From: Paraburkholderia largidicola
Lineage (GTDB): Bacteria > Pseudomonadota > Gammaproteobacteria > Burkholderiales > Burkholderiaceae
Length of the DNA: 64,000 nucleotides
Assembly (NCBI RefSeq): GCF_013426895.1
Contig: NZ_AP023174.1
Coordinates: 434,001 to 498,000, forward strand
Reading direction: 5' to 3'
Shown here: piece by piece, positions 18,576 through 55,419 of the stretch
Layout of the letters: each line of letters opens with the position of its first letter
Numbering within the stretch: position 1 is the first letter of the stretch
Translations under genes and position numbers: made by a program
The notes under the pieces: model-generated
What the model was told of the DNA's origin: nothing
The model's database searches: none
The model's input: only the letters and a program-made list of their open reading frames with translations

Positions 18576-19232
18576 CTGGCATCCGCGTTTTGTTATTGGT
18601 GCTTCAAGCGTTGCCCCTGTGCGGGGCGGCACCTACTTTTCTTTGCCGCCGCAAAGAAAAGTAGGCAAAAGAAAGCGGCTCACACCGCCAGCCCGTGTTC
18701 ATATCCACGGGCCCTCAACGTCCCCACACTTCACACGGCAGCGCACTGGTTTGCATTCGTTGCCAACGCTTTTAACGCGCGCCTCACCCGCTTCAAATTC
18801 GTGTGCACGGAACGGCGGCAGCGAACGGCGTGTGCCGCCCAGGTGGCAAACTCTGTGTAGGTTGTCGCGGCTTATGCGTTAGCGTTCTTACGGCGTTGGG
18901 CGCGTGCGCAATCGGTCCGGGGTGATGCGTGTGGAGCACCGAGGGCCTACACACAGTTTGCCACCTGGGCGGCAGTGGACTATCTGGCGCGGCATGCTGC
19001 AGTGCGGGTAAGTGAAGTGGGTGAGGCGCGCATTTAGAGCGCTGGCAACGGACGTGGGTCACGTGGTTGCCGTGTGAAGCGTAGGAACCTTTGGGGGCCC
19101 TCAGGCAAATACAAGAACTGGCGGTGTGAGCCGCTTTCTTTTGCCTACTTTTCTTTGCGGCGGCAAAGAAAAGTAGGTGCCGCCCCGCACAGGGGCGACG
19201 CGTGAAGCAAGCTAACGAATCGCGGATGCCAG
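18576..19232. repeat. Large inverted-arm repeat element, copy A
   Basis: A 657-bp non-coding element between the convergent ridA and queF genes. It opens with CTGGCATCCGCG and closes with its complement. Each arm has a GCCCC/GGGGC hairpin (18613-18627; 19182-19196) and a 15-bp-stem hairpin, CCTACTTTTCTTTGC with GCAAAGAAAAGTAGG (18632-18665; 19144-19177). Further in, the arms share inverted blocks CTTCACACGGCA, CGTTGCCA and CCAGGTGGCAAACT. The variable blocks differ between arms: GCGGCAGCGA at 18815-18824 on the left, and a different 25-bp block at 18975-18999 on the right. The 85-bp centre is not symmetrical. Near-identical copies occur at 44656 and 53630. Confidence 0.9.
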
Positions 19233-19321
19233 CGAAAGCGAAAGCGAAAGCGCAAACGCAAATGCAAATGCCGTTACGCGGATGCCAGCGCAAAGCGCAA
19301 AAACCCCCAAGCGTCGCAGAC
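19233..19321. other. A+C-rich outer flank of copy A
   Basis: Just outside the core, GAAAGC-type hexamers are repeated in tandem (about 19234-19258) and degrade into CAAATG units. A second GCGGATGCCAGCGC follows at 19278-19291, then AGCGTCGCAGAC (19310-19321), which also ends copy C. The strand is A+C-rich (39 of 60 in 19261-19320, only 6 T). No gene is seen. Confidence 0.6.
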
Positions 19322-19328
19322 AGAAAAA

Positions 19329-20153
19329 CTACTGCCTTGCAGTCCGCAAATTATCCGGCATCGGCAGATTAAAGTTCGTGCGGAAAGGATTGATATCCAG
19401 CCCACCGCGCCGGGTATAGCGCGCATACACAGCCAGCTTCACAGGCTGACAAACCTTGAGCACATCGAGAAAGATCTTCTCGACACATTGCTCATGAAAC
19501 CCCGTATGGTTTCGATAAGAAATAATGTACCGCAGCAAAGAGGCGTGATCGATCTGCGGCCCCACGTAGTGGATCTGAACAGAACCCCAATCAGGCTGCC
19601 CCGTCACGGGACAATTAGACTTCAAAAGATTGGAGAACAAGGTCTCCTCAGTGGGCGCCTCATCAAGCGCCGCCTTGAGCAACGAAGCATCCGGCAGATA
19701 AACATCCGTATCCAGATCGAGGCGGTCCAGCGAAGTCCCTTCAAACTCATCGAGTGCGAGCTTGGAAAACTCCGCCGGCGGATAAAGATGCAACGAAACA
19801 GATGACCCGCACGCAGCAGAAACGTCCCGCTTGATCGTGTCACGAACGGTCTCGATCGAATCGAACGCGGTCTGCGCAAATGACCCGAGATAAAGCTTAA
19901 AAGACTTCGACTCAACGATATTCGGCGAATCCGCCGGAACAAAGAAGGTCGCAATTGCAATCTGCGGCTTGCCGCGCGCATTGAGCCACGACAGCTCGTA
20001 AGCGTTCCAGATATCCGTGCCGAAAAACGGCAGCGTCGCGCCAACGCCTATCTGCTCGCGCGCATTCTTGCGCGCAATCGGAAAGAGCAGCGATGCATCG
20101 TACTGTTCGGTGTAGCTGGACGGTTTGCCCAGCGGTGATTGTTCGGGTGTCAT
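19329..20153 (-). CDS. queF: NADPH-dependent 7-cyano-7-deazaguanine reductase QueF
   Basis: 274-aa type II (bimodular, E. coli-like) QueF, which reduces preQ0 to preQ1 in queuosine tRNA biosynthesis. The nucleophilic Cys sits in '[12 protein letters not shown]', with the conserved Asp seven residues later. The NADPH/QueF loop '[15 protein letters not shown]' and the C-terminal '[29 protein letters not shown]' are intact. Its ATG overlaps the stop of the upstream 5'-nucleotidase by 4 bp, so translation is probably coupled. The 3' end faces repeat copy A. Its + strand near the element shows raised A+C. Confidence 0.95.
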
Positions 20154-21052
20154 GATGCGTTCACGATGCCACTCAGCACATGCCCGATCGCTGTCACGTC
20201 ACGGGCCGATTCGCAGTGGCGAATTTGGTCGTCGAAGAAAAAGTCCGGCTCGAACTCGCGCAAAAACGCGCTCTTGTCGAGCCCGCCAAGAAACATCGCT
20301 TCGTCGATTTCGATGTTCCAGGCCATCAAGGTGCGTATCGCCCGCTCATGCGCAGGCGCCGAACGCGCCGTCACCAGCGCAGTGCGAATGTGCATCGGCG
20401 CGGCTTCGTCAGCCAGCGTCTGCAGTCGATGCAACGCTTTCAACAAAGGCTTCAAAGGTCCATCGGCAAGCGGCAAATCCTTGTTGTCGATCTCATGACC
20501 GACGAACGCGCCCAAGCCGTCCTTCTGAAACACGCGCTCTGCCTCGTCGGAAAACAGCACCGCGTCGCCGTCGAACGCAATGCGGATTTCGTCCGGATAC
20601 TTGCTCGCCATTTTCGCCGATTCGGGCAACACGCGTGCAGCGGGAAATCCAGCGGCCAGCGCATCGCGCACGTCGTCCTGATTCGCCGACAGAAACAGCG
20701 ACGCATTCAGCGGCTTCAGATACGCGAACGGTGCGCGGCCGCGTGTGAACACCCCGCGCTCGATCGCCAGCCCGTGCTCGCGGCATGAACTGAACGCGCG
20801 CAAGCCGCTGATGGGATCGCTGCGCGACAGAATCACGACTTCCACACAGTGCCCACCCGTATTCAGCGCAAGCAGCTTGCGAATCAGCGGAAACGCAACG
20901 CCCGGCTTGGCCGGCACGTTCAGACGCTCGCGCTGCAGCGCTTCGTAGTCGCGCAGATTGCCGTCCTCGTACACACGGTTCTCTTCCTCGAAATCAAACA
21001 GCGCGCGCGAGGAGATCGCCACTACCAGTTTGTCGTCGAGCGAAAAGGCCAT
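20150..21052 (-). CDS. Cytosolic 5'-nucleotidase (cN-I family)
   Basis: 300-aa protein matching the 5'-nucleotidase cN-I family. It begins '[20 protein letters not shown]', where the family's active-site Asp lies in 'FDFE', and later has '[16 protein letters not shown]' and '[27 protein letters not shown]', the C-terminal Asp-rich motif. It would dephosphorylate nucleoside monophosphates. Its 4-bp overlap with queF suggests a nucleotide or deazaguanine salvage link, but that is inference. Only about 12 bp separates it from ilvA upstream, so the three minus-strand genes probably form one transcript. Confidence 0.88.
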
Positions 21053-21064
21053 ACGCGTGCTTCG

Positions 21065-22588
21065 TTATCCGAGGAACAGTCGATACACCGGGTTCAACGT
21101 CTCTTCCCAATACGGATAGCCGAGCGTCGCAAGGAAGCGCGCGAATTCCGAATCTTCCGCCGACGGCACCTGAATGCCGACAAGGATCGAGCTGTAGTCC
21201 GCGCCCTGGTTCCGGTAATGGAAGAGGCTGATATTCCAGTTCGGCGCCATCGACGACAGGAACTTCATCAGCGCGCCGGGCCGTTCGGGAAACTCGAAGC
21301 GGAACAGGCGCTCGTCATGCGCGAGCGCAGACCGTCCGCCGACCATGTAACGAATATGCTGCTTCGACAGTTCGTCGCCCGTCAGATCGACGGTGGCGAA
21401 GTTGTGCGCCTCGAACGCGCCCTTGATCTGCGCGGACTCGCTGCGATTGCGGATCTGCACGCCGACAAAGATATGGGCCGACGCCGAATCCGCAATACGG
21501 TAGTTGAACTCGGTGACGCTGCGCGTGCCGACCAGTTCACAGAAACGCTTGAAGCTGCCGCGTTCTTCGGGAATCGTCACCGCGAACACGGCCTCGCGCG
21601 CCTCGCCGACTTCCGCGCGCTCCGCGACGAAGCGCATGCGGTCGAAGTTCATGTTCGCGCCGGACGTGATGGCGATCAGCGTCTGGTTTTCGATGCCTTC
21701 ACGTTCCGCGTACTGCTTCGCGCCCGCGACGGCCAGCGAGCCGGCCGGCTCCAGCACGCTGCGGGTGTCCTGAAAGACGTCCTTGATCGCCGCGCACAGT
21801 GCGTCGGTGTCGACGGTCAGCACTTCGTCGAGATATTCCTGGCACAGGCGGAACGTCTCTTCGCCGACCAGCTTGACGGCCGTACCGTCCGAAAACAGGC
21901 CGACTTCGTTCAGCGTCACGCGCTTGCCCGCCTTCAGCGATTGCGCCATCGCGCACGAATCGTCCGTCTGAACGCCGATCACCTTGATCTCCGGGCGCAC
22001 CGATTTCACGTACGCCGCGATGCCCGCCGCGAGACCGCCGCCGCCGATGGGAACGAAGATCGCGTGAATGGGCGCCTGATGCTGGCTCAGCACTTCCATT
22101 GCGACCGTGCCCTGGCCGGCGATCACGTATTCGTCGTCGAACGGATGGACGAAGGTGAGGCCGTGTTGTTCCTGCAGTTTGACGGCGTGCGCGTAGGCGT
22201 CGCTGAACGATTCGCCCGACTGCACGACTTCGACGGTCGGGCCACCATGTGTGCGCACGGCATCGACCTTCACCTGCGGCGTCGTCACGGGAACGACGAT
22301 GATCGCCTTCACGCCCATGCGGGCCGCCGACAACGCGACGCCTTGTGCATGGTTGCCCGCCGAAGCCGTAATCACGCCGCGCGCGAGGGCGTCGGCGGGA
22401 ATGTGCGCCATCTTGTTGTAGGCGCCGCGCAGCTTGAACGAGAAGACGGGTTGATTGTCTTCGCGCTTCAGGTAAATCGGGTTGCGCAGCCGTGCGGACA
22501 GATTCCGCGCATGTTCGAGTTCGGTCTCACGCGCGACGTCGTAGACGCGGGCGGTGAGGATTTTCTTCAGGTAGTCGTGGGAAGCCAT
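21065..22588 (-). CDS. ilvA: Threonine ammonia-lyase, biosynthetic
   Basis: 507-aa PLP enzyme deaminating L-threonine to 2-oxobutanoate, the first step of isoleucine synthesis. The Schiff-base K52 is in 'VFSFKLRGAYNK', the phosphate-binding loop is 'PIGGGGLAAG', and the catalytic domain extends to about residue 320. Two C-terminal ACT-like regulatory repeats follow ('VFAVTIPEERGSFKRFC' and 'RLFRFEFPERPGALMKFL'), which in the family mediate isoleucine inhibition and valine activation. Length matches E. coli IlvA. It starts a minus-strand run with the nucleotidase and queF. A 594-bp non-coding gap lies upstream. Confidence 0.95.
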   Translation of the reverse strand: MASHDYLKKILTARVYDVARETELEHARNLSARLRNPIYLKREDNQPVFSFKLRGAYNKMAHIPADALARGVITASAGNHAQGVALSAARMGVKAIIVVPVTTPQVKVDAVRTHGGPTVEVVQSGESFSDAYAHAVKLQEQHGLTFVHPFDDEYVIAGQGTVAMEVLSQHQAPIHAIFVPIGGGGLAAGIAAYVKSVRPEIKVIGVQTDDSCAMAQSLKAGKRVTLNEVGLFSDGTAVKLVGEETFRLCQEYLDEVLTVDTDALCAAIKDVFQDTRSVLEPAGSLAVAGAKQYAEREGIENQTLIAITSGANMNFDRMRFVAERAEVGEAREAVFAVTIPEERGSFKRFCELVGTRSVTEFNYRIADSASAHIFVGVQIRNRSESAQIKGAFEAHNFATVDLTGDELSKQHIRYMVGGRSALAHDERLFRFEFPERPGALMKFLSSMAPNWNISLFHYRNQGADYSSILVGIQVPSAEDSEFARFLATLGYPYWEETLNPVYRLFLG

Positions 22589-23182
22589 GCGGGTGACGCG
22601 CGATGCGCTATTTCGGACGGGAAAGGATCAATGATAGCGCCAACCGTCTGTCCGGACGCGGCTGATCCGGGATTTGTCCGATTGCGTTCGCTTTATCGGC
22701 AAGCTTGGCCAGCCGACCGGACGGTCGAAAAATCGGGCTCAACGTGGACACGGACGCGATGCATTTTGCGGGCGTCGCCGCCGGGCATTTTCGTGGCGAA
22801 TTCTGGCAAGCCAACGCGCAAAGGCTTGTCGCGCGGACATTCAGGCGTCAACGCGCAATAGGATCATGCGGTAGAATCCTATTTTGGAACAAGGATCGGA
22901 AGATGCACTGGCAGCCTCGGATCGCCCATTTGATGCCCGTCCCGCGCGAGTCTCGTCCCGCGGCGCAGCGGCACGTGCGGCATTCACGATCGTGTAGCTG
23001 CCTCTGAGCGCCCGCGAGGCGACCGGTCACCCACGTTCCAGCCATATCCCCGGCGATCCCGGGCGCTGGCCTGCCGGTTGCGGCTTCGCACACTAGAAAG
23101 ATTTCCAGCATTGCGCCCCACGCGCATTGTCAGCGGGCCTCAGCGATGAGTGCGCGCCGCTGACCTACCGAGTCGTCCAAAC
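22589..23182. other. Divergent intergenic region ilvA / FAD oxidoreductase
   Basis: 594 bp between two divergent genes with no credible coding frame. It must hold both promoters. TAGAATCC at 22873-22880 is a possible -10 box but has no partner at the right distance. Composition is typical of the genome and no strong hairpin with a T-run, T-box or leader peptide rich in branched-chain residues was found. Confidence 0.5.
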
Positions 23183-26100
23183 ATGAACGCACCTCAAGTT
23201 TTCGATCCGCACGGCGCCGCCGCCACCGTTGCCGCCGACGCCGAACCGCGTCTGCGCGAAATCCCGTACAACTACACGTCGTTTTCCGACCGCGAAATCG
23301 TTATTCGCCTGCTCGGCGACGAAGCCTGGGCCGCGCTCGACGAACTGCGCGCGGAACGCCGCACCGGCCGCTCGGCGCGCATGCTGTACGAAGTGCTCGG
23401 CGATATCTGGGTCGTGCGCCGCAATCCTTACCTGCAGGACGATCTGCTCGACAACCCGAAGCGCCGCGCGCTGCTGATCGAAGCGTTGAATCACCGTCTG
23501 ACCGAAATCGAAAAGCGCCGCCGCGCCGACCTCGTCGAACATGGCGACGATGCGGGCGTCGATCGCGCGGCGCGTGTCGAAACGCTGGTCGCCGCCGCGC
23601 GCCGCGCCGTCGATGCGTTTGCGGGTGAGTTCGAGAAGATGGCCGAGCTGCGCCGCCGCTCGACCAAGGTGCTGGGCCGCCAGACGCAGAAGGACAACAT
23701 CCGTTTCGACGGCCTTGCGCGTGTTTCGCACGTGACGGACGCGACCGACTGGCGCGTCGAATATCCGTTCGTCGTCTTGACGCCGGACTCGGAAGCCGAA
23801 ATCGCCGGTCTCATCAAGGCGTGTTTCGAACTCGGCCTGACCGTGATTCCGCGCGGCGGCGGCACGGGCTATACGGGCGGCGCGGTGCCGCTGACGCCGT
23901 TCTCGGCTGTCATCAACACTGAAAAGCTCGAACAGCTCGGCGCGGTCGAACTGACCGAATTGCCCGGCGTCGCGCACAAGGTGCCGACCATTTTCTCCGG
24001 CGCAGGCGTCGTCACGCGTCGCGTGACGGAAGCGGCCGAGCAGGCGGGCTATGTGTTCGCCGTCGATCCGACCTCGCTGGACGCATCGTGCATCGGCGGT
24101 AATGTCGCGATGAACGCAGGCGGCAAGAAGGCGGTGTTGTGGGGCACGGCGCTCGACAACCTCGCGTGGTGGCGCATGGTCGACCCGGAAGGGAACTGGC
24201 TCGAAGTCACACGCCTCGATCACAACCTCGGCAAGATTCACGACATTCCCGTCGCGCGCTTCGAACTGAAGTGGTTCGACGGCGAATACGCGCCGGGCGA
24301 AAAGCTGCTGCGCACCGAGTCGCTCGACATCGAAGGGCGGCGTTTTCGCAAGGAAGGTCTCGGCAAGGACGTCACGGATAAATTCCTCGCTGGTCTGCCG
24401 GGCATCCAGAAAGAAGGCTGCGACGGCCTGATTACGTCGGCGCGCTGGGTGCTGCACAAGATGCCCGCGCATACGCGCACGGTCTGTCTGGAGTTCTTCG
24501 GCCAGGCGCGCGAAGCGATTCCGAGCATCGTCGAAATCAAGGACTATCTGTTCGAAACGTCGAAACAGGGCGGCGCGATTCTCGCGGGCCTCGAACACCT
24601 CGACGAGCGTTATCTGCGCGCGGTCGGCTACGCGACCAAGAGCAAGCGCAATGCGTTTCCGAAGATGGTGCTGATCGGCGATATCGTCGGTGACGATGCC
24701 GATGCCGTCGCGACGGCGACGTCGGAAGTGATCCGCATGGCCAACGGCAAGAGCGGCGAAGGCTTCGTCGCCGTGAGCGCCGAGGCGCGCAAACGCTTCT
24801 GGCTCGACCGCAGCCGCACGGCCGCGATCGCGAAGCACACCAACGCGTTCAAGATCAACGAAGACGTCGTGATTCCGCTCAACCGCATGGGCGAGTATAC
24901 GGACGGCATCGAGCGCATCAACATCGAACTGTCGATCAAGAACAAGCTGCAACTGGTCGACGCGCTCGAAGCGTTCTTCAAGAGCGGCAAGCTGCCGCTC
25001 GGCAAAAGCGACGACGCGAACGAAATTCCGAGCGCCGAACTGCTCGAAGATCGCGTGCAGCAGGCGCTCGAACTGCTCGGCCATGTGAAGAAGCGCTGGG
25101 AATTCCTGCGCGACAAGCTCGATCTGTCGTTGCGTGAAGCGCAGCACTATCTGGTGGGACTCGGCTATGCGGGGCTCGCGGAGAAATTCGCGGATCGTGT
25201 CGACGATCAACCGGACGCGAACGTGTTCCATATCGTCCAGGATCGCACGGTGCGCGTGTCGTGGAAGCAGGAGATCCGCGCGGAACTGCGCCAGATCTTC
25301 AACGGCGGCGAGTTCAAACCGATCCTCGACGAAGCGCAGGCCATCCATAAGCAGGTGCTGCGCGGCCGCGTGTTCGTCGCGCTCCACATGCACGCGGGCG
25401 ACGGCAACGTTCACACGAACATTCCCGTCAACTCCGACAACTACGAGATGCTGCAGGACGCGCATCACGCGGTGGCGCGCATCATGAAGCTCGCGCGTTC
25501 GCTGGATGGCGTGATTTCCGGCGAGCACGGCATCGGCATCACGAAGCTCGAATTCCTGACGGAAGACGAGATCGGCGAATTCCGCGCGTACAAGCAGCGC
25601 GTCGATCCGCATGGCCGCTTCAACAAGGGCAAGCTGCTCGAGGGCGCCGATTTGCGCAACGCGTACACGCCGTCGTTCGGGCTGATGGGCTATGAATCGC
25701 TGATCATGCAGCAGTCCGATATCGGCGCGATCGCCGATTCGGTGAAGGACTGCCTGCGCTGCGGCAAGTGCAAGCCCGTGTGCGCGACGCACGTGCCGCG
25801 CGCGAACCTGCTGTACAGCCCGCGCAACAAGATTCTCGCCACGTCGCTGCTGGTCGAGGCGTTCCTGTACGAAGAGCAGACGCGCCGTGGCGTGTCGATC
25901 AAGCATTGGGACGAGTTCAACGATGTCGCCGATCACTGCACCGTCTGCCACAAGTGCGTGACGCCGTGTCCGGTGAAGATCGACTTCGGCGATGTCACGA
26001 TGAACATGCGCAATCTGCTGCGCAAGATGGGCAAGAAGAAGTTCAACGCGGGCAACGCGGCGGGCATGTTCTTCCTCAACGCGACGAATCCGCAGACCAT

Positions 26101-27268
26101 CAATCTCGCGCGCACCGCGATGATGGGCGTCGGCTACAAGGCGCAGCGTCTCGGCAACGACGTGCTGAAGAAGCTCGTCAAGAAGCAGACGGCGCATCCG
26201 CCCGCGACGACGGGCAAGCCGCCTGTGGTCGAGCAGGTGATCCACTTCGTCAACAAGAAGATGCCGGGCAACCTGCCGAAGAAAACGGCGCGCGCGCTGC
26301 TCGACATCGAAGACAACAAGATCGTGCCGATCATCCGCAACCCGAAGGCCACGACGGTCGATTCGGAAGCGGTGTTCTATTTCCCCGGCTGCGGTTCCGA
26401 GCGCCTGTTTTCGCAGGTCGGTCTCGCGACCCAGGCGATGCTGTGGGAAGCGGGCGTGCAGACGGTGCTGCCGCCGGGCTATCTGTGTTGCGGCTATCCG
26501 CAGCGCGGCTCGGGGCAGTTCGACAAGGCCGAACAGATCGTCACGGATAACCGCGTGCTGTTCCACCGTGTCGCGAACACGCTGAACTATCTCGACATCA
26601 AGACGGTGGTCGTGTCGTGCGGCACGTGTTACGACCAGCTGGCGGGCTACGAATTCGAGAAGATCTTCCCGGGTTGCCGGATCATCGACATCCACGAATT
26701 CCTGCTGGAGAAGGGCATCAAGCTCGAGGGTGTGACGGGCACGCGCTACATGTATCACGACCCGTGCCACACGCCGATCAAGACGATGGACCCGGTCAAG
26801 CTGGTCAATGAGCTGATGGGGGCCGAAAAGAACGACGGCTACAGGATCGAGAAGAACGATCGTTGTTGCGGCGAGTCGGGCACGCTGGCTGTCACGCGTC
26901 CGGATATTTCGACGCAGGTGCGCTTCCGCAAGGAAGAGGAAATCCGTAAGGGCGCGGCGAAGTTGCGCGGTATTCCCGTTGTCGCCGATGCGGGCGCGAA
27001 TGCGCAGCCGGGTTCGGTGCTGAAGGCCGGCGACGGCCCGCAGCCGAACGGCGCAACGAATGGTGCAACAAGCGGCGCGGCCACCGACGTCAAGATCCTG
27101 ACCAGCTGCCCGTCCTGTCTGCAAGGCCTGTCGCGCTACAACGAAGACGCGAATATCGAAGCGGACTATATCGTTGTCGAAATTGCGCGACACGTGCTCG
27201 GCGAGAACTGGATGGCCGACTATGTGCAGCGCGCGAACAATGGCGGAATCGAGCGCGTGCTGGTCTAA
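23183..27268 (+). CDS. Giant FAD-linked oxidoreductase / Fe-S protein (DUF3683, GlcD-GlcF-like fusion)
   Basis: 1361-aa fusion. The N-terminal about 190 residues match the DUF3683-type extension. Then comes a VAO/FAD_binding_4 domain ('[12 protein letters not shown]', about 222) with the FAD-oxidase C-terminal domain ('[16 protein letters not shown]', '[14 protein letters not shown]'). Two 4Fe-4S clusters follow ('[11 protein letters not shown]' about 857; '[12 protein letters not shown]' about 919). Two CCG domains come last ('[10 protein letters not shown]', '[11 protein letters not shown]', 'CGTCYDQL', 'RCCGESG'). This combines glycolate-oxidase/D-lactate-dehydrogenase subunits in one chain, so it should oxidise a D-2-hydroxy acid and pass electrons towards quinone. 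Start 23183 (MNAPQV) is chosen over a GTG 33 bp upstream. Ubiquinone genes lie downstream. Confidence 0.9.
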
Positions 27269-27730: not shown

Positions 27731-27737
27731 GGTCATC

Positions 27738-44537: not shown

Positions 44538-44655
44538 GTTTTGTGGGGTTTTTGCTTGCGGGCCGCTGGTGTATTAGCGGTTCGCATTTGGGCTGCGCCG
44601 GCATCCGCGATACGGTTTTTGCTGCGCAAGCTGTTTGGTTTTTTGGAAGTTTGCG
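44538..44655. other. G+T-rich flank of copy B
   Basis: Non-coding DNA from the thiolase stop to the repeat core. 44521-44580 has 48 G+T of 60 bases. A stray GGCATCCGCG near 44600 resembles the element end. No gene. Confidence 0.6.
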
Positions 44656-45313
44656 CTGGCATCCGCGTAATGCCTTCGTGCTTCAGGCGTTGCCCCTGTG
44701 CGGGGCGGCACCTACTTTTCTTTGCCGCCGCAAAGAAAAGTAGGCAAAAGAAAGCGGCTCACACCGCCAGTCCTTGTGTTTGCCTGAGGGCCCCCAACCG
44801 GTCTTATGCTTCACACGGCAACGTCTCCATTGGCGCTCGTTGCCAACGCTTTAAATAGAAGTCTCACCCGCTTCAGGCACCCGTATGCGGGGCTGGCGGC
44901 AGCGAACGCTCTCTGCCGCCCAGGTGGCAAACTGTGTGTAGGTTGTAGTGCCGAAAAGGTCGGCGCTCTTACAAGAGACACCGACCTTGTTTTTCCGTCC
45001 GGAGTGATGCGCGTATGGCGCGAAAGCCTGCACACAGTTTGCCACCTGGGCGGCGGCGGACGGTCTGGCGCGGTGTGCTGCGATGCGGGTGCATGAAGCA
45101 GGTGAGGCGTACAGAGAGAACGTTGGCAACGAAGGCGAGCCGGTGCGTTGCCGTTTGAAGCATAGGACCGGTTGGGGGCCCTCAGGCAGGATAAAGGATT
45201 GGCGGTGTGAGCCGCTTTCTTTTGCCTACTTTTCTTTGCGGCGGCAAAGAAAAGTAGGTGCCGCCCCGCACAGGGGCGACGCCTGAAGCACGAAGGCAAA
45301 ACGCGGATGCCGG
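44656..45313. repeat. Large inverted-arm repeat element, copy B
   Basis: A 658-bp copy of the element at 18576, in the same orientation. The end motif CTGGCATCCGCG is at 44656-44667 and its complement (with one change) at 45302-45313. Arm hairpins CCTACTTTTCTTTGC/GCAAAGAAAAGTAGG are at 44711-44744 and 45225-45258. The left-arm marker GCGGCAGCGA is at 44896-44905 and the right-arm variable block at 45056-45080, as in copy A. It lies between two same-strand beta-oxidation genes, so it interrupts a possible operon. Confidence 0.9.
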
Positions 45314-47058: not shown

Positions 47059-47158
47059 AAATGCTGCGACCCGGCTTTGGGCCGCCGCGCCGCCAATATG
47101 GTTCTAAAATACCTCAGACCGGCATAGCGCGTTGGCCACCGAATAAGAGGAATCTGTC

Positions 47159-47829: not shown

Positions 47830-50800
47830 ATGATCTCTTTTCTATCGAAGCGGCTGCTGATCAATCTGGCGGTCGTCGCTGCTGCGGTCGGCGCGAACGC
47901 CTTCGTCGCGTACACGCAGATTTGCGGACAGCGCGACGCCGATGCGCGCACGGTCCGCTCGACGGCCATCCGCCAGAATCTGGAAGCCTATCGCGCGACG
48001 CTCGAAGACGGCCTCGACATGCTCGGGCGTTACGAGGCAACGGCCGAGCCCGCGTCCGCCAATGCCGTGCCCGCCATGTCGGCTTCGCTCGCGAAGATCG
48101 ACCGGGCGCTGCACGAGCAGCTGGCGAACCAGCCGAATGTCTCCGGCGCGCTCGCGCAGCTCACGTCCGACGGCTCGCGTCTGCAGCAGGACATTGCGCT
48201 CGCGCTCGCCAAAACCACTGCGCCGGAGCAGGACGGCTCGCGCGCCTGGGCCGCGCAGACCTATACGCGTCTCGGGATGGAAGTCGACCGGCTCGAAGCG
48301 CGGATGGACCAGTTGCGCGCCGAAGAAGACCTGGCACTGAAGGCGGCGCTCGATGCATCGATGCGCGATTCGCGCTACGCGATGCTGTTCCTGATCGTGA
48401 CGATGCTCGCGGGCAGCGGACTGCTGATCTACACATTCGGCGCGCGTGAAAACGTCGCGCGCGAAAAGCTGCGTATCGCGAAAGCGCTGCATCGGCACGA
48501 CGAGCGCTTTCGCGGGCTGTTCGAACAGCATCCCGTGCCGATGTACATTTTCGACCGCGATACGCTGCGCTTTCTCGCTGTCAACGCGGCGGCCGTGCAG
48601 CAATATGGCTATTCCGAGAGCGAATTCCTGGCGATGACCGTGCGCGCGATCCGCCCGCACGCCGAAGTGGCACGGCTCGAATCGCACTTGCAGCGCAGCG
48701 ACGTGGCGCCGGGCGGTCCGCGCACGATGGCGGGCATCTGGCATCACCGGCGCAAGGACGGCTCGCAGATCAGCGCCGACATCTCGTATCACGCGATGAC
48801 CTTCATGGGCCGGCCCGCGCTGTTCGTGCTCGCCGACGACGTCACCGAGCAGATCAACGCCGAAGCCGAAGCGCAGCGTTCGAACCAGATGCTGGAAACG
48901 GTGATCGACAACATCCCGCAGCGCATTTTCTGGAAAGACAAGGAGCTGCGCTATCTCGGCTGCAACATGGCCTTCGCGCGCGACGCGGGCCTCGCGTACC
49001 CGGAGCAGGTGATCGGCAAGCGCGACGAGGACATGCCGTGGCGCGCATTCGCCGACGATCTGCGCGGCCAGGATACGGAAGTGATGGCCTCCGGCGTGCC
49101 GAAGATGAACTACGAAACCGACATACTGATCGACGGCGTACATCGCACGACGGTGACGAGCAAGCTGCCGTTCACCGACAGCGACGGCCGCGTGATCGGC
49201 GTGCTCGGCTCATACACCGATATCACTGAGCGCAAGCGCGCGGACCTCGCGCTGCGCCTGCAAAGCCGCGCGCTCGACGCGAGCGTCAACGCGATTCTGA
49301 TTACGGCGCCGTCGAAGGAAGGCAATCTGATCGAGTACGTGAACCCGGCGTTCAAGCGCATTACGGGCTACGATCCGCAGGAAGTGATCGGCCAGGATTG
49401 CCGCCTGCTGCAGCGCGACGACCGCGATCAGGAAGGCATTGTCGGGATCCGCCAGGCGCTCGCGGCAAACCGCGAAGTGAGCGCGGTGCTGCGCAACTAT
49501 CGCAAGGACGGCGCGCTGTTCTGGAATCAGCTGTATATCGCGCCTGTGCCGGATGCCGATGGGCAGACCACGCATCACATCGCCGTCATCAACGACGTCA
49601 CGGCGCTGATCCGCTATCAGGAACAGCTCGAATATCAGGCGAACTACGACAGTCTCACGCGCCTGCCGAACCGCAATCTGCTGCGCGACCGGCTGCAGCA
49701 TGCGCTGATCGTCGCGCAGCGGCATCACAAGGGCGTGGCCGTCGTGTTCATCGATCTCGATGGCTTCAAGAACGTCAACGATAGCCTCGGGCATAGCGTC
49801 GGCGACAGGCTGCTGTCGGTGGTCGCGGACCGTCTCGCACGTTGCGCGCGGGCCAGCGACACGGTTGCGCGTCACGGCGGCGACGAGTTCGTGATCGTCA
49901 TGACGGATACCGTCGACGAGCAGTCGCTGATCGCGTGGATGGAGCGCGTGCGTGCGTCGATTTCGGAGCCGGTGTGGCTCGACGGCACGGAGTTGTATGT
50001 CGGCTGCAGCATGGGCGCGAGTCTGTTCCCGCAGGACGGTGACGACGCCGAAACGCTGATGAAGAAAGCCGACCTTGCGATGTACCGCGCGAAGGACATG
50101 GGCCGCAACACGTTCCAGTTCTATCAGCCGGAGATGAACGTGTCGGCGGGCGCGCGGCTGAATCTGGAGCGGCGTCTGCGCCGCGCGCTGCGCGACAACG
50201 AGTTCCTGTTGCATTACCAGCCGCAGGTCGATATCGAAACGGGGCAGGTGGTCGGCATGGAAGCGCTGGTGCGCTGGAGCGACCCGGAAGTCGGGCTGAT
50301 TCCGCCGTCGCAGTTCATCCCCGTTGCCGAGGAAAGCGGGCTGATCGGGCCGCTGTCGGAATGGGTGCTGCGCGAAGCGTGCCGCCAGAACAAGGCGTGG
50401 CAGGACGAAGGCTTGCCGGCTGCGCGCGTGTCGGTGAACCTGTCGGCGCGGCAGTTCCAGCAGCGCGATATCGCGAAGCTCGTGATGCAGGTGCTCGAAG
50501 AGACGGGGCTCGACCCGCAGTATCTCGAACTCGAACTGACCGAGAGCACCATCATGCGAAACGCGGAAGAGGCCGTGTCGATGCTCAACGAACTGCACGC
50601 ACTCGGCATTGGCCTGGCCATCGACGACTTCGGCACGGGTTATTCGAGCTTGAGCTATCTCAAGCGCTTTCCGGTGGATCGGTTGAAGATCGACAGGTCG
50701 TTCGTGTCGGATATCGGCGAATCGTCGGACGACGAGACGATCACGTCCGCGATCATTGCGCTCGCACATTCGCTGAATCTGCAGGTGATTGCGGAAGGGG

Positions 50801-50952
50801 TGGAGACGTCGACGCAGCTCGACTTCCTCAAGGAGCGCGCCTGCGACGAGATGCAGGGCTACTTCTTCGCGAAGCCGATGCCGCACGATGCGATTCCCGG
50901 CATGCTGCAGCGGGGCGCCGAGAACGCAGCGGTCATTGCTGCTAACGCCTGA
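47830..50952 (+). CDS. Membrane PAS-GGDEF-EAL cyclic-di-GMP protein
   Basis: 1040-aa inner-membrane signalling protein. Two TM helices (about 10-30 and 178-198) bracket a periplasmic helical sensor. Three PAS domains follow (starting near 'FDRDTLRFLAVNAAA', 'IDNIPQRIFWKDKE' and 'NAILITAPSKEGNLIEYV'), then GGDEF with intact 'RHGGDEF' (about 682) and inhibitory I-site 'RASD' five residues before it, and an EAL domain with 'EALVRW', 'LTESTIM' and 'DDFGTGYSSL'. Both catalytic signatures are complete, so it could make and degrade c-di-GMP. Start 47830 (MISFLSKRLL) is preferred over an in-frame ATG at 47755. Monocistronic. Confidence 0.9.
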   Translation: MISFLSKRLLINLAVVAAAVGANAFVAYTQICGQRDADARTVRSTAIRQNLEAYRATLEDGLDMLGRYEATAEPASANAVPAMSASLAKIDRALHEQLANQPNVSGALAQLTSDGSRLQQDIALALAKTTAPEQDGSRAWAAQTYTRLGMEVDRLEARMDQLRAEEDLALKAALDASMRDSRYAMLFLIVTMLAGSGLLIYTFGARENVAREKLRIAKALHRHDERFRGLFEQHPVPMYIFDRDTLRFLAVNAAAVQQYGYSESEFLAMTVRAIRPHAEVARLESHLQRSDVAPGGPRTMAGIWHHRRKDGSQISADISYHAMTFMGRPALFVLADDVTEQINAEAEAQRSNQMLETVIDNIPQRIFWKDKELRYLGCNMAFARDAGLAYPEQVIGKRDEDMPWRAFADDLRGQDTEVMASGVPKMNYETDILIDGVHRTTVTSKLPFTDSDGRVIGVLGSYTDITERKRADLALRLQSRALDASVNAILITAPSKEGNLIEYVNPAFKRITGYDPQEVIGQDCRLLQRDDRDQEGIVGIRQALAANREVSAVLRNYRKDGALFWNQLYIAPVPDADGQTTHHIAVINDVTALIRYQEQLEYQANYDSLTRLPNRNLLRDRLQHALIVAQRHHKGVAVVFIDLDGFKNVNDSLGHSVGDRLLSVVADRLARCARASDTVARHGGDEFVIVMTDTVDEQSLIAWMERVRASISEPVWLDGTELYVGCSMGASLFPQDGDDAETLMKKADLAMYRAKDMGRNTFQFYQPEMNVSAGARLNLERRLRRALRDNEFLLHYQPQVDIETGQVVGMEALVRWSDPEVGLIPPSQFIPVAEESGLIGPLSEWVLREACRQNKAWQDEGLPAARVSVNLSARQFQQRDIAKLVMQVLEETGLDPQYLELELTESTIMRNAEEAVSMLNELHALGIGLAIDDFGTGYSSLSYLKRFPVDRLKIDRSFVSDIGESSDDETITSAIIALAHSLNLQVIAEGVETSTQLDFLKERACDEMQGYFFAKPMPHDAIPGMLQRGAENAAVIAANA

Positions 50953-51015
50953 TCGTCAGGCATTTCACGTTGGAACATTCAAGGCCGCGCCCTGCGTGGG
51001 CACGGCACGCCGGCT

Positions 51016-51411
51016 TCAGTCCAGTTCCGGCAAGGCGCGCGGGCGGCGGTCGCTGTCCGTCGCGACGTAGGTGAGGGTCGCTTCCGTCACTTTTACCGTT
51101 TCTTCCGAGAGGCTCATGCGCTGCGCGTAGACCTCGACGGCGACCGTTACCGAGGTGTTGCCCGTCTTCACGATATCCGCGTAAAAGCTCAGCAGATCGC
51201 CGACGAACACCGGCTGCTTGAACACGAACGAGTTGACGGCGATGGTTGCAACGCGGCCGTTCGCGCGGCGGCTTGCGGGAATCGAGCCGGCGATGTCGAC
51301 TTGCGCCATGATCCAGCCGCCGAACACATCGCCATGGACGTTCGCATCCGACGGTTGCGGGACGACGCGCAGCGCGCACGGTTTCTGCGGGAGATTGAGA
51401 GTCTGGGTCAT
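51016..51411 (-). CDS. Acyl-CoA thioesterase (hotdog fold, YciA-like)
   Basis: 131-aa hotdog thioesterase that hydrolyses acyl-CoA to free acid and CoA. Core 'RVVPQPSDANVHGDVFGGWIMAQVDIAGSIPA' carries the conserved Asn/His-Gly-Asp region and helix; 'AVNSFVFKQPVFVGDLLSFYADI' is the second family block. An ATG 12 bp further upstream (51423) is also possible; neither has a strong Shine-Dalgarno. It is convergent with the c-di-GMP gene and divergent from the ABC exporter. Confidence 0.9.
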   Translation of the reverse strand: MTQTLNLPQKPCALRVVPQPSDANVHGDVFGGWIMAQVDIAGSIPASRRANGRVATIAVNSFVFKQPVFVGDLLSFYADIVKTGNTSVTVAVEVYAQRMSLSEETVKVTEATLTYVATDSDRRPRALPELD

Positions 51412-51679
51412 CGGGTCATCCATGAATTCAGTTGAGCCGACAGGGATGGCGCTCGCGACGACGGCATGACCGGGAAGACCAGTGTCAGCGCGGCGAAAGC
51501 GGCGCCAGCCGGCTTCTGCGACAATATTGCCAGATCAGGAATTGTACGGGAAAGCGCACGGTGGAACTTATTGCCAGCGTGTCGCGTTCGGAATGCTGTT
51601 CGGTTCGTCGAACGCACTTGCCCGTCACGTTCCCCACGAGTCACGCGTCAAGCGTGCTGGCTTTCCCCACAATAGAACC

Positions 51680-53569
51680 ATGCGTCGCTATTCCGCTTCG
51701 TCCGAACCGTCGCCGATTTCGAATCAGCCGCGCAACGACTGGCAAACCATCGTCTCGCTGCTGCCGTACCTCGCGACCTACAAGTGGCGCGTGGTGTTCG
51801 CGCTCAGCTGCCTGATTGGCGCGAAGGTTGCCAATCTCGGCGTGCCGATCGTGATGAAGCGCATCGTCGACAGTCTTGCTTCCGTGCAGCACCTGACGGC
51901 GCTCGGCCGCGCGACGAATGCACCGGCCGTCGTGCTGCTGGGCGGCGTGGGGCTGCTGGTGGTGGCATATGCCGTCGTGCGTCTGTCCACTTCGCTCTTC
52001 ACCGAGCTGCGCGAAATCCTCTTCTCGAAGGTGACAGAAAGCGCGGTGCGTCAACTGGCGCTGAAAGTGTTCCGGCATCTGCATGCGCTGTCGCTGCGCT
52101 TTCATCTGGAGCGGCAGACGGGCGGCATGTCGCGCGATATCGAACGCGGCACGCGCGGCATCACGCAACTGATTTCGTATTCGCTCTACAGCATTCTGCC
52201 GACGCTCGTCGAAGTCGGCCTCGTGCTCGGTTTCTTCGTCGTCAAATACGAGGCGTACTACGCGATCGTCACGTTCATCGCGCTGGCTGCGTACATCACG
52301 TTCACAGTAAAGGTGACCGAGTGGCGTACGCATTTTCGCCGCACGATGAATGAGCTCGATTCGAACGCGAATTCGCGCGCCATCGATTCCTTGCTGAACT
52401 ACGAGACGGTCAAGTACTTCAACAACGAAGAGTGGGAAGCGCAGCGTTACGACGAGAACCTGAAGCGCTATCGCGCGGCGGCGATCAAGTCGCAGAACTC
52501 GCTGTCGGCGCTGAACTTCGGGCAACAGGCGATCATCGGCACCGGGCTCGTGTTTATTCTCTGGCGTGCGACGCAGGGCGTGATGGCAGGGCGGCTGACG
52601 CTCGGCGATCTCGTGCTGATCAACACGTTCATGCTGCAGCTTTATATTCCGCTGAATTTTCTTGGCGTCGTGTATCGCGAGCTGAAGCAGAGCCTTACCG
52701 ATATGGACCGGATGTTCACGCTGCTCGGCGCGGCGCGCGAAGTGCCCGATGCGGTCAATGCGTTGCCGCTCGTCGTGCGCGGCGCGCAGGTGAGCTTCGA
52801 GCATGTGAACTTCGCGTACGAGCCAGCGCGGCAGATCTTGCATGACGTGAGCTTCACGATTGCCGCGGGCACGACGACGGCTGTGGTTGGTCACAGCGGA
52901 TCGGGCAAATCGACGCTCGCGCGGCTGCTGTTTCGCTTCTACGATCTGGATCGTGCGACGGGTGGCGCGATTCGCATCGACGGGCAGGATATTCGCGATG
53001 TGACGCAGGATTCGCTGCGCGCGTCGATCGGTATCGTGCCGCAGGATACGGTGCTGTTCAACGACACGATCTACTACAACATCGCGTATGGCAGGCCCTC
53101 GGCGACGCGCGACGAAGTGATCGCGGCGGCGCGCGCGGCGCATATTCACGAGTTCATCGAGAGCTTGCCCAAGGGGTATGACACGCCTGTCGGCGAGCGT
53201 GGGTTGAAGCTTTCGGGTGGGGAGAAGCAGCGTGTTGCGATTGCGCGGACCGTGCTGAAGAATCCGCCTGTGCTGCTGTTCGATGAAGCGACTTCCGCGC
53301 TTGATTCGCGGTCGGAGCGTGCTATCCAGCACGAACTGGATCAGATTGCTCGCGAGCGGACGACGTTGATTATTGCGCATCGGCTGTCGACGGTCGTGCA
53401 TGCGGAGCAGATTATCGTGATGGATAAGGGGCGCATTGTCGAGCGTGGCACTTTCGGGGAGCTTATTCTCGTTGGTGGGTTGTTTGCCCAGATGTGGGCC
53501 TTGCAGCAGGAGCGTGCTGCGCACGCGGAAGAGGTTTTGGATTTGCCCGGCAATGGGGCAGGGGGTTGA
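51680..53569 (+). CDS. Atm1/HMT1-type half ABC exporter
   Basis: 629-aa ABCB-type half transporter: five or six TM helices (about 20-320), then a nucleotide-binding domain with Walker A '[14 protein letters not shown]' (about 404), signature 'LSGGEKQR' (about 511) and Walker B '[12 protein letters not shown]' (about 531). 'INYETVKYF'-like text ('[13 protein letters not shown]') in the TM domain is the mark of the Atm1/HMT1 glutathione-metal exporter group. Start 51680 (MRRYSASS) gives the usual length. The 3' end drifts to G/T-ending codons and the next 50 bp (53581-53630) are 38 G+T as it meets repeat copy C. Confidence 0.92.
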
Positions 53570-53576
53570 GGGGTTT

Positions 53577-53719
53577 GTCTGCGACGCTATGGGGCTTGTT
53601 GCTTGTTGCTTGTTGCTTGTTGCTTGTCGCTGGCATCCGCGTTTTGTTAGCGTGCTTCAGGCGTTGCCCCTGTGCGGGGCGGCACCTACTTTTCTTTGCC
53701 GCCGCAAAGAAAAGTAGGC
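53577..53719. repeat. Large repeat element copy C, left part (split by IS30)
   Basis: An outer motif GTCTGCGACGCT (53577-53588) whose complement is at 55408-55419, then a 7-bp tandem array, then the core end CTGGCATCCGCG from 53630, the GCCCC/GGGGC hairpin and the 15-bp-stem hairpin (53685-53718). The element is cut one base after that hairpin by an IS30-family insertion and resumes at 54818. Confidence 0.88.
53594..53628 (+). repeat. GCTTGTT heptamer array
   Basis: Four perfect and one near-perfect (last base C) tandem copies of GCTTGTT, immediately outside the core end of repeat copy C. The unit is 7 bp, so slippage would not keep a reading frame; it is non-coding here. Confidence 0.92.
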
Positions 53720-54817
53720 GAGTTCTCAAGTTTGAAGTGCAACACCCCGCCTCATATAAGGTGTTGCTATGGAAAAACGATACCAACAACTCCAGCCTGA
53801 AGAGCGGCTGACGATTGCCAGCCAGCATCTGCAGGGTTCAAGCATACGGGCCATGGCCCGTATGCTTGGGCGCTCACCTGCAAGGGTGAGTCGCGAACTG
53901 GCTCGCAACTGCGGGCCTGACCGCTATGCTTCGGTGCCGGCCCAGGCGTTAAGCGTGGCGCGACGTGTGGCTGGCCGGCGCCCCGCCAAGCTCGATCCGC
54001 AGGGTGTTACATGGCGCATCGTCCTCACGCTGCTGGACTGGAAATGGTCGCCTCAGCAGATATCAGGTACGCTCAAACGTATGCACCCGAATGATTCGTC
54101 CCAGCGGGTCTCGCATGAGACCATCTATACGGCTATCTACGCTCGTCCGTATGGGGAACTGCGTCGCCAGCTCGTCGCCTGTCTGCGCCACCATCGCAGC
54201 GATCGCATGCCGCGAAGTCGAGGCACAGACCGGCGCGGTCAGATTCCAGATATGGTCAGCATTCATGTGCGCCCACCCGAGGTGGACGACCGCGTGATGC
54301 CGGGCCACTGGGAAGGCGACTTCATCAAGGGTGCAAACAATGCCTCTTCCGTGGGCGTGCTGGTCGAACGCTCCAGCCGCCTTGTGCTGCTTGCCCGCAT
54401 GGACGATGCGACAGCTGCCTCGGCACTCGCGGGCTTCTCCGCCAAACTGAATTCCATCGCTGCGCCGCTGCGACAGAGCTTCACGTACGACCAGGGCAAG
54501 GAAATGGCCTGCCACCAGGAGCTCGCGGCCGCGACCGGTGTGAAGGTCTATTTCTGCGACCCTCACAGCCCCTGGCAGCGTGGCACGTGCGAGAACACCA
54601 ATGGTCTGCTACGCCAGTATCTGCCCAAGGGCACGGATCTCTCGGTCTACAGCCAGGACGACCTTGATGACATCGCTGACAGCCTCAACAGCCGGCCACG
54701 TGCCACACACGCTTTCCACTCGCCGTTCGAAGTCTTCGCCACCATGCTTGCACTTGCTTCTCAACCTGATAATTCCGTTCACTAGGCATTGTGTTGCGCT
54801 TCACATTTGAAACCGCC
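53720..54817 (+). mobile_element. IS30-family insertion sequence, complete
   Basis: A 1098-bp element inserted in repeat copy C. The ends match imperfectly as inverted repeats; both contain TTTGAAG/GTGAAG followed by GCAACAC (left 53731-53748, right in complement). AGGC occurs on each side (53716-53719 and 54818-54821), and joining the flanks rebuilds the uninterrupted sequence seen in copies A and B, so AGGC (or GGC) is the target duplication. One intact transposase fills it. Confidence 0.92.
53769..54785 (+). CDS. IS30-family transposase
   Basis: 338-aa DDE transposase with an N-terminal HTH ('LTIASQHLQGSSIRAMARMLGRSPARVSREL') and the IS30 catalytic core: D in 'GHWEGDFIKG', D in 'FTYDQGKEM' and E in 'CENTNGLLRQYLPKGTDL'. 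Length and order match full-size family members, with no frameshift, so it should be active. Start ATG 53769 lies 49 bp inside the element. Confidence 0.94.
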   Translation: MEKRYQQLQPEERLTIASQHLQGSSIRAMARMLGRSPARVSRELARNCGPDRYASVPAQALSVARRVAGRRPAKLDPQGVTWRIVLTLLDWKWSPQQISGTLKRMHPNDSSQRVSHETIYTAIYARPYGELRRQLVACLRHHRSDRMPRSRGTDRRGQIPDMVSIHVRPPEVDDRVMPGHWEGDFIKGANNASSVGVLVERSSRLVLLARMDDATAASALAGFSAKLNSIAAPLRQSFTYDQGKEMACHQELAAATGVKVYFCDPHSPWQRGTCENTNGLLRQYLPKGTDLSVYSQDDLDDIADSLNSRPRATHAFHSPFEVFATMLALASQPDNSVH

Positions 54818-55419
54818 AGGCAAAAGAAAGCGGCTAACACCGCCAGTGCTTGTGTTTGCCTGAGGGCCCCCATAGGGTCTTACGCTTCAACCGGCAACGC
54901 GCCAGTCCGCGCCCGTTGCCAACGTCCTCTCTGTACGCCTCACCCGCTCCACGCGCCCGCATTACAGCATGCCGTGCCAGATAGTCCACGGCCGCACAGG
55001 TGGCAAACTGTGTGTAGGCCGTTGTACTCCGCACGCCTCACTTCGGGCTAGTAGCGCACGCGTTCCACCCAATAAGAGCGCCGAGCCATACGACGGGACA
55101 ACCTGCACACAGTTTGCCACCTGGGCGGCACATACCACTCGCTGCCGCTTGCTTGAGTACGGGTATTCGAAGTGGGTGAGGCGTTCATTCGGAGCGCTGG
55201 CAACGGACACCGACCAGGGCATTCCCGTGTGAAGTATGGGGACGTTGGGGGCCCGTGGATAGGAATACGTGCTGGCGGTGTGAGCCGCTTTCTTTTGCCT
55301 ACTTTTCTTTGCGGCGGCAAAGAAAAGTAGGTGCCGCCCCGCACAGGGGCGACGCGTGAAGCACGCTAACAAAACGCGGATGCCAGCGCAAACACAAGCA
55401 AACCACCAGCGTCGCAGAC
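54818..55419. repeat. Large repeat element copy C, right part, inverted interior
   Basis: Continues copy C after the IS. Its left-hand variable block (54965-54989) matches the right-arm block of copies A and B, while TCGCTGCCGC (55139-55148) on the right is the complement of their left-arm marker. The 85-bp centre also matches A and B only when reversed. Copy C thus lies in the opposite orientation. Right hairpin 55298-55331, core end CGCGGATGCCAG to 55386, outer motif AGCGTCGCAGAC 55408-55419. Confidence 0.88.

What the first reader, a model, noticed from the sequence alone, without database searches (positions are those of the whole stretch)
18576..55419. Three copies of a large non-coding element with long inverted arms
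Copies at 18576-19232, 44656-45313 and 53630-55386 (the last minus its IS) share about 657 bp with the same plan. The end motif is CTGGCATCCGCG, then a GCCCC/GGGGC hairpin, then a perfect 15-bp-stem hairpin (CCTACTTTTCTTTGC / GCAAAGAAAAGTAGG). Inner inverted blocks CTTCACACGGCA, CGTTGCCA and CCAGGTGGCAAACT follow, around an asymmetric centre of about 85 bp. Conserved paired blocks alternate with variable blocks, as expected if the paired form (cruciform or folded RNA) is selected. All three follow a gene's 3' end; two lie between convergent genes. No protein frame is conserved. I do not recognise it as a named REP, BIME or MITE family.
Basis: seen in the sequence. Interest (0 to 1): 0.75.

Follow-up and report, generated by a model that had tools for sequence, protein, structure and literature searches.

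The report
Giant palindromic repeats after genes
A soil bacterium carries about 170 copies of an apparently undescribed 655-base near-palindrome placed just after gene ends; the copies seem to stay in place but swap sequence with one another, and two related species keep the same palindromic plan with an unrelated inner sequence.

Summary
Confirmed and extended. The element is real at all three sites and belongs to a genome-wide family: 342 end hairpins, about 170 copies, about 1.2% of a 9.47-Mb Paraburkholderia genome; 100 of 103 intact copies are 654-658 bp. It follows gene ends (median 79 bp after a stop; 51 of 103 convergent, 50 tandem, 2 divergent). Within the genome the arms do not covary, and the copies exchange sequence: linkage falls near background within 80-160 bp, and two strains share 20 of 20 chromid sites (0.9% flank divergence) but differ inside the elements in tracts. 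Between species the arms do change together, and P. tagetis and P. silviterrae have the same ends around an unrelated interior that is again palindromic. Best reading: an outsized relative in kind of REPIN/BIME repeats. Two inverted GTAG-tagged hairpin ends enclose a palindromic spacer, acting on the 3' ends of neighbouring transcripts, with copies kept mosaic by ectopic gene conversion. No neighbouring RAYT transposase, target duplication or recent movement was found. Rfam matches only the ends, below cut-off (RF02421). Function is inferred, not shown.

The parts
18576..19232 (+). element copy 1, intact, 657 bp
44656..45313 (+). element copy 2, intact, 658 bp
53630..55386 (-). element copy 3, interrupted by an IS after GTAGG of one end module
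18632..18665 (.). 34-bp perfect hairpin, left end of copy 1
19144..19177 (.). 34-bp perfect hairpin, right end of copy 1
18610..18630 (+). GCCCC/GGGGC hairpin followed by ACCTACTTTT: inward-facing, terminator-like
19179..19199 (-). same inward-facing terminator-like hairpin at the right end
18674..18689 (-). GGCGGTGTGAGCCGC hairpin plus TTTCTTTTGCC: outward-facing, terminator-like
19120..19135 (+). same outward-facing terminator-like hairpin at the right end
18838..18861 (+). inner inverted block (CCCAGGTGGCAAACT...), left
18946..18969 (-). inner inverted block, right
18862..18945 (.). asymmetric centre of copy 1
44711..44744 (.). 34-bp hairpin, left end of copy 2
45225..45258 (.). 34-bp hairpin, right end of copy 2
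53685..53718 (.). 34-bp hairpin, IS-side end of copy 3
55298..55331 (.). 34-bp hairpin, other end of copy 3
53769..54785 (+). transposase of the IS in copy 3 (HTH_38 + rve; IS30-type is my reading of the domains)
19277..19288 (-). extra end-motif unit outside copy 1
44598..44609 (+). extra end-motif unit outside copy 2 (1 mismatch)
18142..18528 (+). 128-aa ORF ending 47 bp before copy 1
19329..20153 (-). 274-aa ORF converging on copy 1

Best explanation
A lineage-specific family of giant REPIN/BIME-like repeats. Two inverted, near-invariant end modules of about 110 bp (end motif, GTAG-tagged GC hairpin, 15-bp hairpin) flank a spacer whose length and palindromic plan are kept while its sequence drifts. 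The elements sit just after stop codons. Inferred function: they act on transcripts arriving from either side. The nascent 3' end folds into the end-module hairpins, which end transcription and/or shield the mRNA 3' end; read-through meets the second end. Shown: structure, copy number, position, tract-wise exchange between copies, between-species covariation. Inferred: that RNA is the acting form, and that exchange arises when breaks at the hairpins are repaired from another copy (ectopic gene conversion).
For: Location: 101 of 103 copies follow at least one gene 3' end; 51 convergent, 50 tandem, 2 divergent, against 41/243/71 of 355 background gaps >60 bp (background mostly from chromid sequence); distance to a 3' end has quartiles 50/79/140 bp, to a 5' end 163/215/310. 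Terminator-like hairpins in both directions at both ends. Ends near-invariant, interior variable. Linkage decays from r2 0.28 (adjacent) to 0.041 at 41-80 bp and 0.012 beyond 320 bp. Two strains: 20 of 20 chromid sites shared, same orientation, tract-wise differences inside; one 183-bp tract is 98.9% identical to the copy at another site of the same genome. Between-species compensatory change. Plan retained with an unrelated interior in P. tagetis/P. silviterrae. One covarying pair in the end module: 16 C-G, 11 G-C, 1 U-G, 2 unpaired of 30 chosen distinct modules.
Against: No transcript data. No within-genome arm covariation overall: columns 13-36 are slightly above permutation (z 2.0 and 1.5), columns 277-300 clearly below (z -7.4 and -7.0). 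A consensus fold is only marginally better paired within copies than permuted (94.8 vs 94.4%), mainly from short-range central pairs that linkage could explain. No strong strand bias of wobble: G.T 2589 vs A.C 2301 cells, so RNA is not favoured over DNA. Several large tracts have no near-exact donor (best 84-90%), though the donor library was partial; exact donors of 37-57 bp are weak evidence. Over the strain interval the ends (0.69%) are not clearly slower than the flanks (0.91%). The covarying end-module column breaks the outward terminator-like stem in the G-C lineages (alignment). RF02421 gave no match in L114 and L115 at E<=0.01.
Confidence: 0.5

Rival explanations
1. Selfish non-autonomous mobile DNA (MITE or giant REPIN) moved by an unseen transposase; gene 3' ends are merely harmless landing places.
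For: High copy number, lineage-specific expansion (14 of 144 genus genomes, own included, with a match at E<=1e-60), absence at two orthologous sites in P. phymatum, GTAG-hairpin ends like REPs (REP feature from the abstract and passages of PMC3733652).
Against: No RAYT beside the element: 0 of 30 fetched Y1_Tnp loci (33 matches listed) in 13 relatives, and 0 of 2 in the own genome, carry it within up to 1.5 kb. No target-site duplication. No gain or loss of an element at 20 chromid sites between two strains.
Confidence: 0.3
2. DNA-level element: a cruciform or array of inverted protein-binding sites for chromosome organisation, supercoil relief between convergent genes, or recombination.
For: Near-symmetric design with little strand bias, enrichment between convergent genes, conserved inverted blocks, exchange between copies.
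Against: 50 of 103 copies are between tandem genes; no binding protein was looked for or identified; an RNA role explains the 3'-end position as well.
Confidence: 0.25
3. Passive relic: old inverted duplications homogenised by recombination, without function.
For: Mosaic evolution; no coding signal; ends and flanks diverge at similar rates between the two strains.
Against: Ends stay near-invariant while the interior of the same recombining copies varies; length is fixed within a few bp; the palindromic plan persists after interior replacement and between-species changes are compensatory.
Confidence: 0.15

Closest known systems
REPINs / REP elements (with RAYT transposases)
   Same: Two inverted conserved ends with a GTAG tag and GC hairpin around a spacer kept by length and hairpin capacity; high copy; gene 3' ends and convergent gaps; used as IS targets. 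REPIN features from passages of PMC3116915, REP placement from passages of PMC3733652, ISPpu9 inserted in REPs from the start of an abstract (PMC8450116).
   Different: About 655 bp instead of 20-40 bp (REP) or 71 bp between the 16-mer starts of a GI REPIN; no RAYT found beside it; sites static between two strains; interior exchanged between copies.
BIMEs (bacterial interspersed mosaic elements)
   Same: Palindromic units in opposite orientations, with iterated end units, after genes (definition from the start of the abstract of PMC2817692, and recall).
   Different: Fixed full-length plan in 103 of 118 places examined rather than variable combinations; different sequence.
Rfam RF02421 (Bp1_684, Burkholderia sRNA candidate)
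   Same: Sub-threshold full-model matches at both ends, facing outward: 32.9 and 31.8 bits here, 40.4 and 39.3 in a P. tagetis copy.
   Different: Below the gathering score of 44; covers about 113 nt of an end, not the element; no match at E<=0.01 in 2 of the 5 relatives' loci given.
Bidirectional intrinsic terminators
   Same: GC hairpins followed by T-rich stretches on both strands.
   Different: Far larger, repeated genome-wide, T stretches interrupted; termination untested. Terminator features are recalled.
MITEs
   Same: Non-coding, terminal inverted repeats, many copies (features recalled).
   Different: No target duplication, no parent transposase found, whole body palindromic.

Membership tests
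REP / REPIN | GTAG-type tag at the foot of a short palindrome | tested here: met
   GTAGG-TGCC-GCCCC..GGGGC read outward; G and C of the hairpin invariant and GTAGG invariant or >=90% in 30 aligned modules
REP / REPIN | Cognate RAYT (Y1_Tnp) flanked by the repeat | tested here: not met
   2 Y1_Tnp loci in own genome and 30 fetched (of 33 matches) from 13 relatives: none with element or hairpin in up to 1.5 kb
REP / REPIN | Size 20-40 bp (REP) or 71 bp between end 16-mers (GI REPIN) | tested here: not met
   100 of 103 intact copies 654-658 bp
REP / REPIN | Extragenic, after genes, rare between divergent genes | tested here: met
   51 convergent, 50 tandem, 2 divergent of 103
REPIN | Spacer kept by length and hairpin capacity with compensatory change | tested here: met
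   between species and in unrelated interiors; within the genome there is no covariation
REPIN | Evidence of mobility (excision or new insertions) | tested here: not met
   20 of 20 chromid sites shared by two strains; the only empty sites seen are two in P. phymatum
MITE | Target-site duplication | tested here: not met
   no excess of direct duplication of 3-12 bp at boundary shifts -3..+3 in 103 copies
MITE | Ends shared with an autonomous transposon | tested here: inconclusive
   only Y1 transposases were searched genome-wide; two other ISs sit inside the hairpins as passengers
Rfam RF02421 | Score at or above gathering cut-off | tested here: not met
   best 32.9 bits in the window and 40.4 in relatives, cut-off 44
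Intrinsic terminator | GC hairpin followed by T-rich tract | tested here: met
   9 sites in a 1-kb stretch around copy 1 vs 1.9 (sd 1.4) in shuffles; pattern match only
Intrinsic terminator | Transcription ends there | not testable with these tools
   no transcript data held

The most novel reading that the evidence does not exclude
A distinct class of intragenomic sequence population: giant palindromic 3'-end elements fixed in place that no longer spread by transposition but form one freely recombining pool within a cell. Selection acts on the folded plan and the two ends, so that the whole interior can be replaced between lineages while palindromy and length are kept. Hairpin cleavage and repair from other copies would be the motor of the exchange.
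Probability: 0.3. Interest if true: 0.8.

Novelty: new variant of a known kind. Interest (0 to 1): 0.62.

Why it matters
About 1.2% of a bacterial genome consists of 655-bp near-palindromes of almost constant length, a kind of sequence usually thought unstable (recalled). They mark gene ends, avoid divergent promoters, and exchange sequence fast enough to be seen between strains with 0.9% flank divergence. If the reading holds, they make two questions testable in one organism: how bacteria tolerate hundreds of long palindromes, and whether repeats at gene ends are kept as functional 3' ends or as selfish DNA. They also show that absence of within-genome covariation does not exclude a selected fold when copies recombine.

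Tried and rejected
Protein-coding element: rejected; no codon periodicity (the longest stop-free runs, median 140 codons against 118 in shuffles, are only somewhat longer). RAYT-mobilised REP: no RAYT seen beside the element. Phage origin: no match in the 50,697 phage records. Rfam: nothing at gathering threshold in the window; MIR918 at relaxed threshold is taken as a hairpin artefact. TSD: none. RNA-strand signature through wobble bias: slight only (the + strand folds better in 33 of 40 copies). Flank-flank pairing (each copy inserted into its own hairpin): only a small excess of within-copy over permuted identity; not pursued. A first gene caller was too insensitive and was replaced (63 of 77 annotated stops found, 63 of 65 predictions right; it misses short genes, for example both ORFs next to copy 1). 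One search crashed on a zero-length row; G069 was dropped and the analysis rerun. The fold was given in a wrong register and is not used. In one search the 5-nt score was set up wrongly (it returned 0 throughout); only its table of loop/segment pairs is used. One search was an empty test script. Nine paper searches (listings and starts of abstracts) showed no description of this element in the open library; the hairpin letters occur in 3 papers, unrelated by title.

Selection limits: the 103 copies came partly from lists showing perfect motif matches first, so invariance of hairpin and inner motif in the sample is favoured. Independent counts at <=3 mismatches (342/2 = 171 by hairpin, 350/2 = 175 by inner motif) argue that few copies were missed. 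Of 118 places in the fetched G000 stretches, 15 were dropped from the alignment as interrupted or partial.
Full report
OBSERVATION. The window is bases 434001-498000 of the contig C1 of a 9.47-Mb, five-contig genome. By two stretches of its replicon C3 it is close to Paraburkholderia sp. 22B1P (99.6-99.7%) and P. largidicola (97-99%). The three reported copies are present as described. A search of the genome scored 40 of 234 candidates; these are (near) full-length copies at 85-87% identity apart from the query itself, and each also matches its own reverse complement at 72-76%. The end hairpin occurs 342 times and the inner motif 177+173 times, with zero matches of the reversed control patterns. 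That gives about 170 copies, about 112 kb, about 1.2% of the genome. In the stretches I fetched first there are 118 element places: 103 distinct intact copies and 15 interrupted or partial ones. Of the 103, 100 are 654-658 bp; mean pairwise identity is 0.826 (range 0.70-0.97).

ANATOMY. From each end inwards: CTGGCATCCGCG; a variable 22-bp block; a GCCCC/GGGGC hairpin; the 15-bp-stem hairpin; a GCGGC...CCGC segment; then alternating conserved inverted blocks and variable blocks to an asymmetric centre. The ends (roughly columns 37-118 and 541-620) are near-invariant, the interior is not. Read outward, each end begins GTAGG followed by the GC hairpin, as in GTAG-tagged REPs (family feature from the abstract and passages of PMC3733652). 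Pattern scans of copy 1 find a terminator-like hairpin facing inward and another facing outward at each end, so each strand meets two. Copy 1 folds as RNA at -473 kcal/mol against -272 for shuffles (z -35.8) and as DNA at z -20.6. Outside the ends, extra CTGGCATCC units are often iterated in mirror image, and flanks are T/G-rich on the left and A/C-rich on the right.

POSITION. With a codon-usage gene caller (63 of 77 annotated stops recovered, 63 of 65 predictions right), 51 of 103 copies lie between convergent genes, 50 between tandem genes and 2 between divergent genes; background gaps over 60 bp, taken mostly from chromid sequence, are 41, 243 and 71 of 355. The distance from a gene's 3' end has quartiles 50/79/140 bp, from a 5' end 163/215/310. 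The caller misses short genes, so these distances are upper bounds.

DOES THE PAIRED FORM MATTER? Within the genome, no sign: pairing between the two arms of a copy equals pairing between arms of different copies (0.717 vs 0.719 over 324 pairs; 0.470 vs 0.474 over 169 variable pairs). By 12-pair blocks, columns 13-36 are slightly above permutation (z 2.0, 1.5) and columns 277-300 well below (z -7.4, -7.0). A consensus fold with G.U pairs has 94.8% of cells paired against 94.4% (sd 0.06%) after permutation; the excess comes mainly from a few short-range pairs near the centre, where linkage could produce it. Between species, yes: across 18 sequences (4 species consensuses and 14 single elements from 10 other genomes; G069 dropped) 103 of 324 pairs show two or more Watson-Crick types with both sides changed, against 42-60 when partners are slid by 1-6 columns, and 73.3% of cells are paired against 69.0% (maximum 70.6%) after permuting rows. 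For columns 1-36 the figures are 88% against 72%, for columns 119-330 63.1% against 59.6% (maximum 61.4%). The pairing register was taken from our own genome's consensus, and these controls do not remove relatedness. A second line: P. tagetis (6 copies) and P. silviterrae (4 copies) share the ends with ours (93-99% over 82-93 bp, one copy of each compared), but the interior has no confident similarity. Raw global identity to one of our copies was 0.63 and 0.68, above a 0.57 shuffled-arm baseline, so I tested scores against shuffles: z at most 1.8, and no significant profile match. That interior is itself palindromic: arm identity 0.70-0.76 in all 10 copies against at most 0.69 in shuffles (the arms include a little of the end module), and 7 of 10 interiors match their own reverse complement at E 1e-6 to 1e-11. 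Arm-to-arm conversion could mimic compensatory change, so this shows that the palindromic plan is maintained, not by which force.

In the end module, one base pair between the hairpin loop and a downstream GCGGC/GCCGC segment covaries: 16 C-G, 11 G-C, 1 U-G and 2 unpaired of 30 distinct modules that I chose to represent the states (0 of 500 shuffles as high on cells with both-side change; the two measures that count pairs or types show nothing). Both states occur in P. tagetis and P. silviterrae (alignments). In the table of 514 modules, 475 follow the rule, 35 have an extra G and 4 break it; by an exact rule 23 of 30 unique modules fit against 12.2 on average and at most 19 in 500 shuffles. 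This is a single column pair and so moderate evidence for a fold that uses the loop.

WHY NO COVARIATION WITHIN THE GENOME: THE COPIES RECOMBINE. Linkage between variable columns falls from r2 0.28 for neighbours to 0.041 at 41-80 bp and 0.012 beyond 320 bp (1/n is 0.010); four gametes are found in 89-100% of column pairs by distance class. At a locus with two elements, flanks of this genome and P. largidicola are near-identical while the interior of one element is replaced (0.825 identity) and the other has an 80-bp tract. Between 22B1P and P. largidicola, each chromid has 20 elements and 40 hairpins at <=2 mismatches, all in pairs. All 20 sites find a one-to-one partner in the same orientation, 14 by both flanks and 6 by one flank only, because of IS insertions, rearranged flanks or the end of a fetched stretch. 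Flanks differ by 0.91% (36 of 42 flanks; 6 dropped as aligned too short or below 90% identity). In the 16 pairs that are full length in both strains the ends differ at 18 of 2624 positions and the rest of the element at 363 of 7851, in tracts. A 183-bp tract with 25 differences from its ortholog is 98.9% identical to the copy at another site of the same genome; three tracts of 37-57 bp match other copies exactly, which is weaker. Other large tracts find only 84-90% donors, but the donor library was partial (103 copies from the near-identical G000 plus about 20 per strain). Ectopic gene conversion is the simplest account; allelic import would be expected to carry flanks along (inference).

DISTRIBUTION AND MOBILITY. 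Fourteen of 144 genus genomes have a match at E<=1e-60, own genome included, four candidates scored per genome. The hairpin at <=3 mismatches is in 24 of 59 genomes searched, own included, all of the same genus. In plasmid records 7 of 19 hits cover at least 80%, all Paraburkholderia; hits in Caballeronia and Burkholderia are partial. Two orthologous sites lack the element in P. phymatum. No target duplication, no RAYT seen beside the element, no phage record. Two ISs use it as a target: an IS30-type one after GTAGG (4 copies, 98-99.9% identical) and an IS481-type one in the hairpin loop (6 copies).

WHAT IT IS. It works like a REPIN or BIME: inverted hairpin ends, spacer kept by length and fold, gene 3' ends, IS target. 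It is not filed as a member: size and RAYT tests fail. Rfam RF02421, a predicted Burkholderia sRNA family, matches both ends facing outward below its cut-off here and in 3 of 5 relatives' loci given; the paper that I take as its source (an assumption) does not mention '684' in its held main text (PMC3521395, find only). This fits the idea that the ends act as RNA but proves nothing. My best guess is a two-way 3'-end element: hairpins at the first end stop or protect each incoming transcript, with the second end as backstop. The symmetric design with little strand bias leaves a DNA-level role open. The literature statement is limited to the searches named in Tried and rejected, in an open-access library.

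Noticed in passing
window 53722-54817; L049, L060, L067: A 1.1-kb IS30-type IS is inserted at the same point of the end module (after GTAGG) in four copies, in either end.
   Followed up: partly
L031, L032, L056, L087, L099, L104: A 1278-bp IS481-type IS sits in the loop of the 34-bp hairpin in six copies, with a short GC duplication and both arms left.
   Followed up: partly
window 18554-18642 (-) and 19167-19279 (+): Sub-threshold Rfam RF02421 (Bp1_684, Burkholderia sRNA candidate) matches at both element ends, facing outward; stronger in a P. tagetis copy.
   Followed up: partly
L169; L132; L185:4180-5140: End-motif units CTGGCATCCGC iterate outward in mirror-image arrays on one or both sides of the element, about 36-46 bp apart in L169 and L132.
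   Followed up: partly
flanks of many copies, e.g. L033, L107: Outer flanks often form a second inverted pair, such as TTTTTTTGTCTGCGACGC...GCGTCGCAGACAAAAAAA, G/T-rich on the left and A/C-rich on the right.
   Followed up: partly
L185:4356-5013: At one orthologous site Paraburkholderia sp. PGU19 carries its element in the opposite orientation to the other strains compared.
   Followed up: no
G000:C3:80001-480000; chromids of 22B1P and P. largidicola: Elements are sparse on the third replicon: 1 in 400 kb, and 20 per 2.3-2.5-Mb chromid, against about 170 in the 9.47-Mb genome.
   Followed up: no
draft contigs G003:C31, G003:C92, G020:C287: Some draft contigs end at or inside these elements, so short-read assemblies may undercount them.
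   Followed up: no
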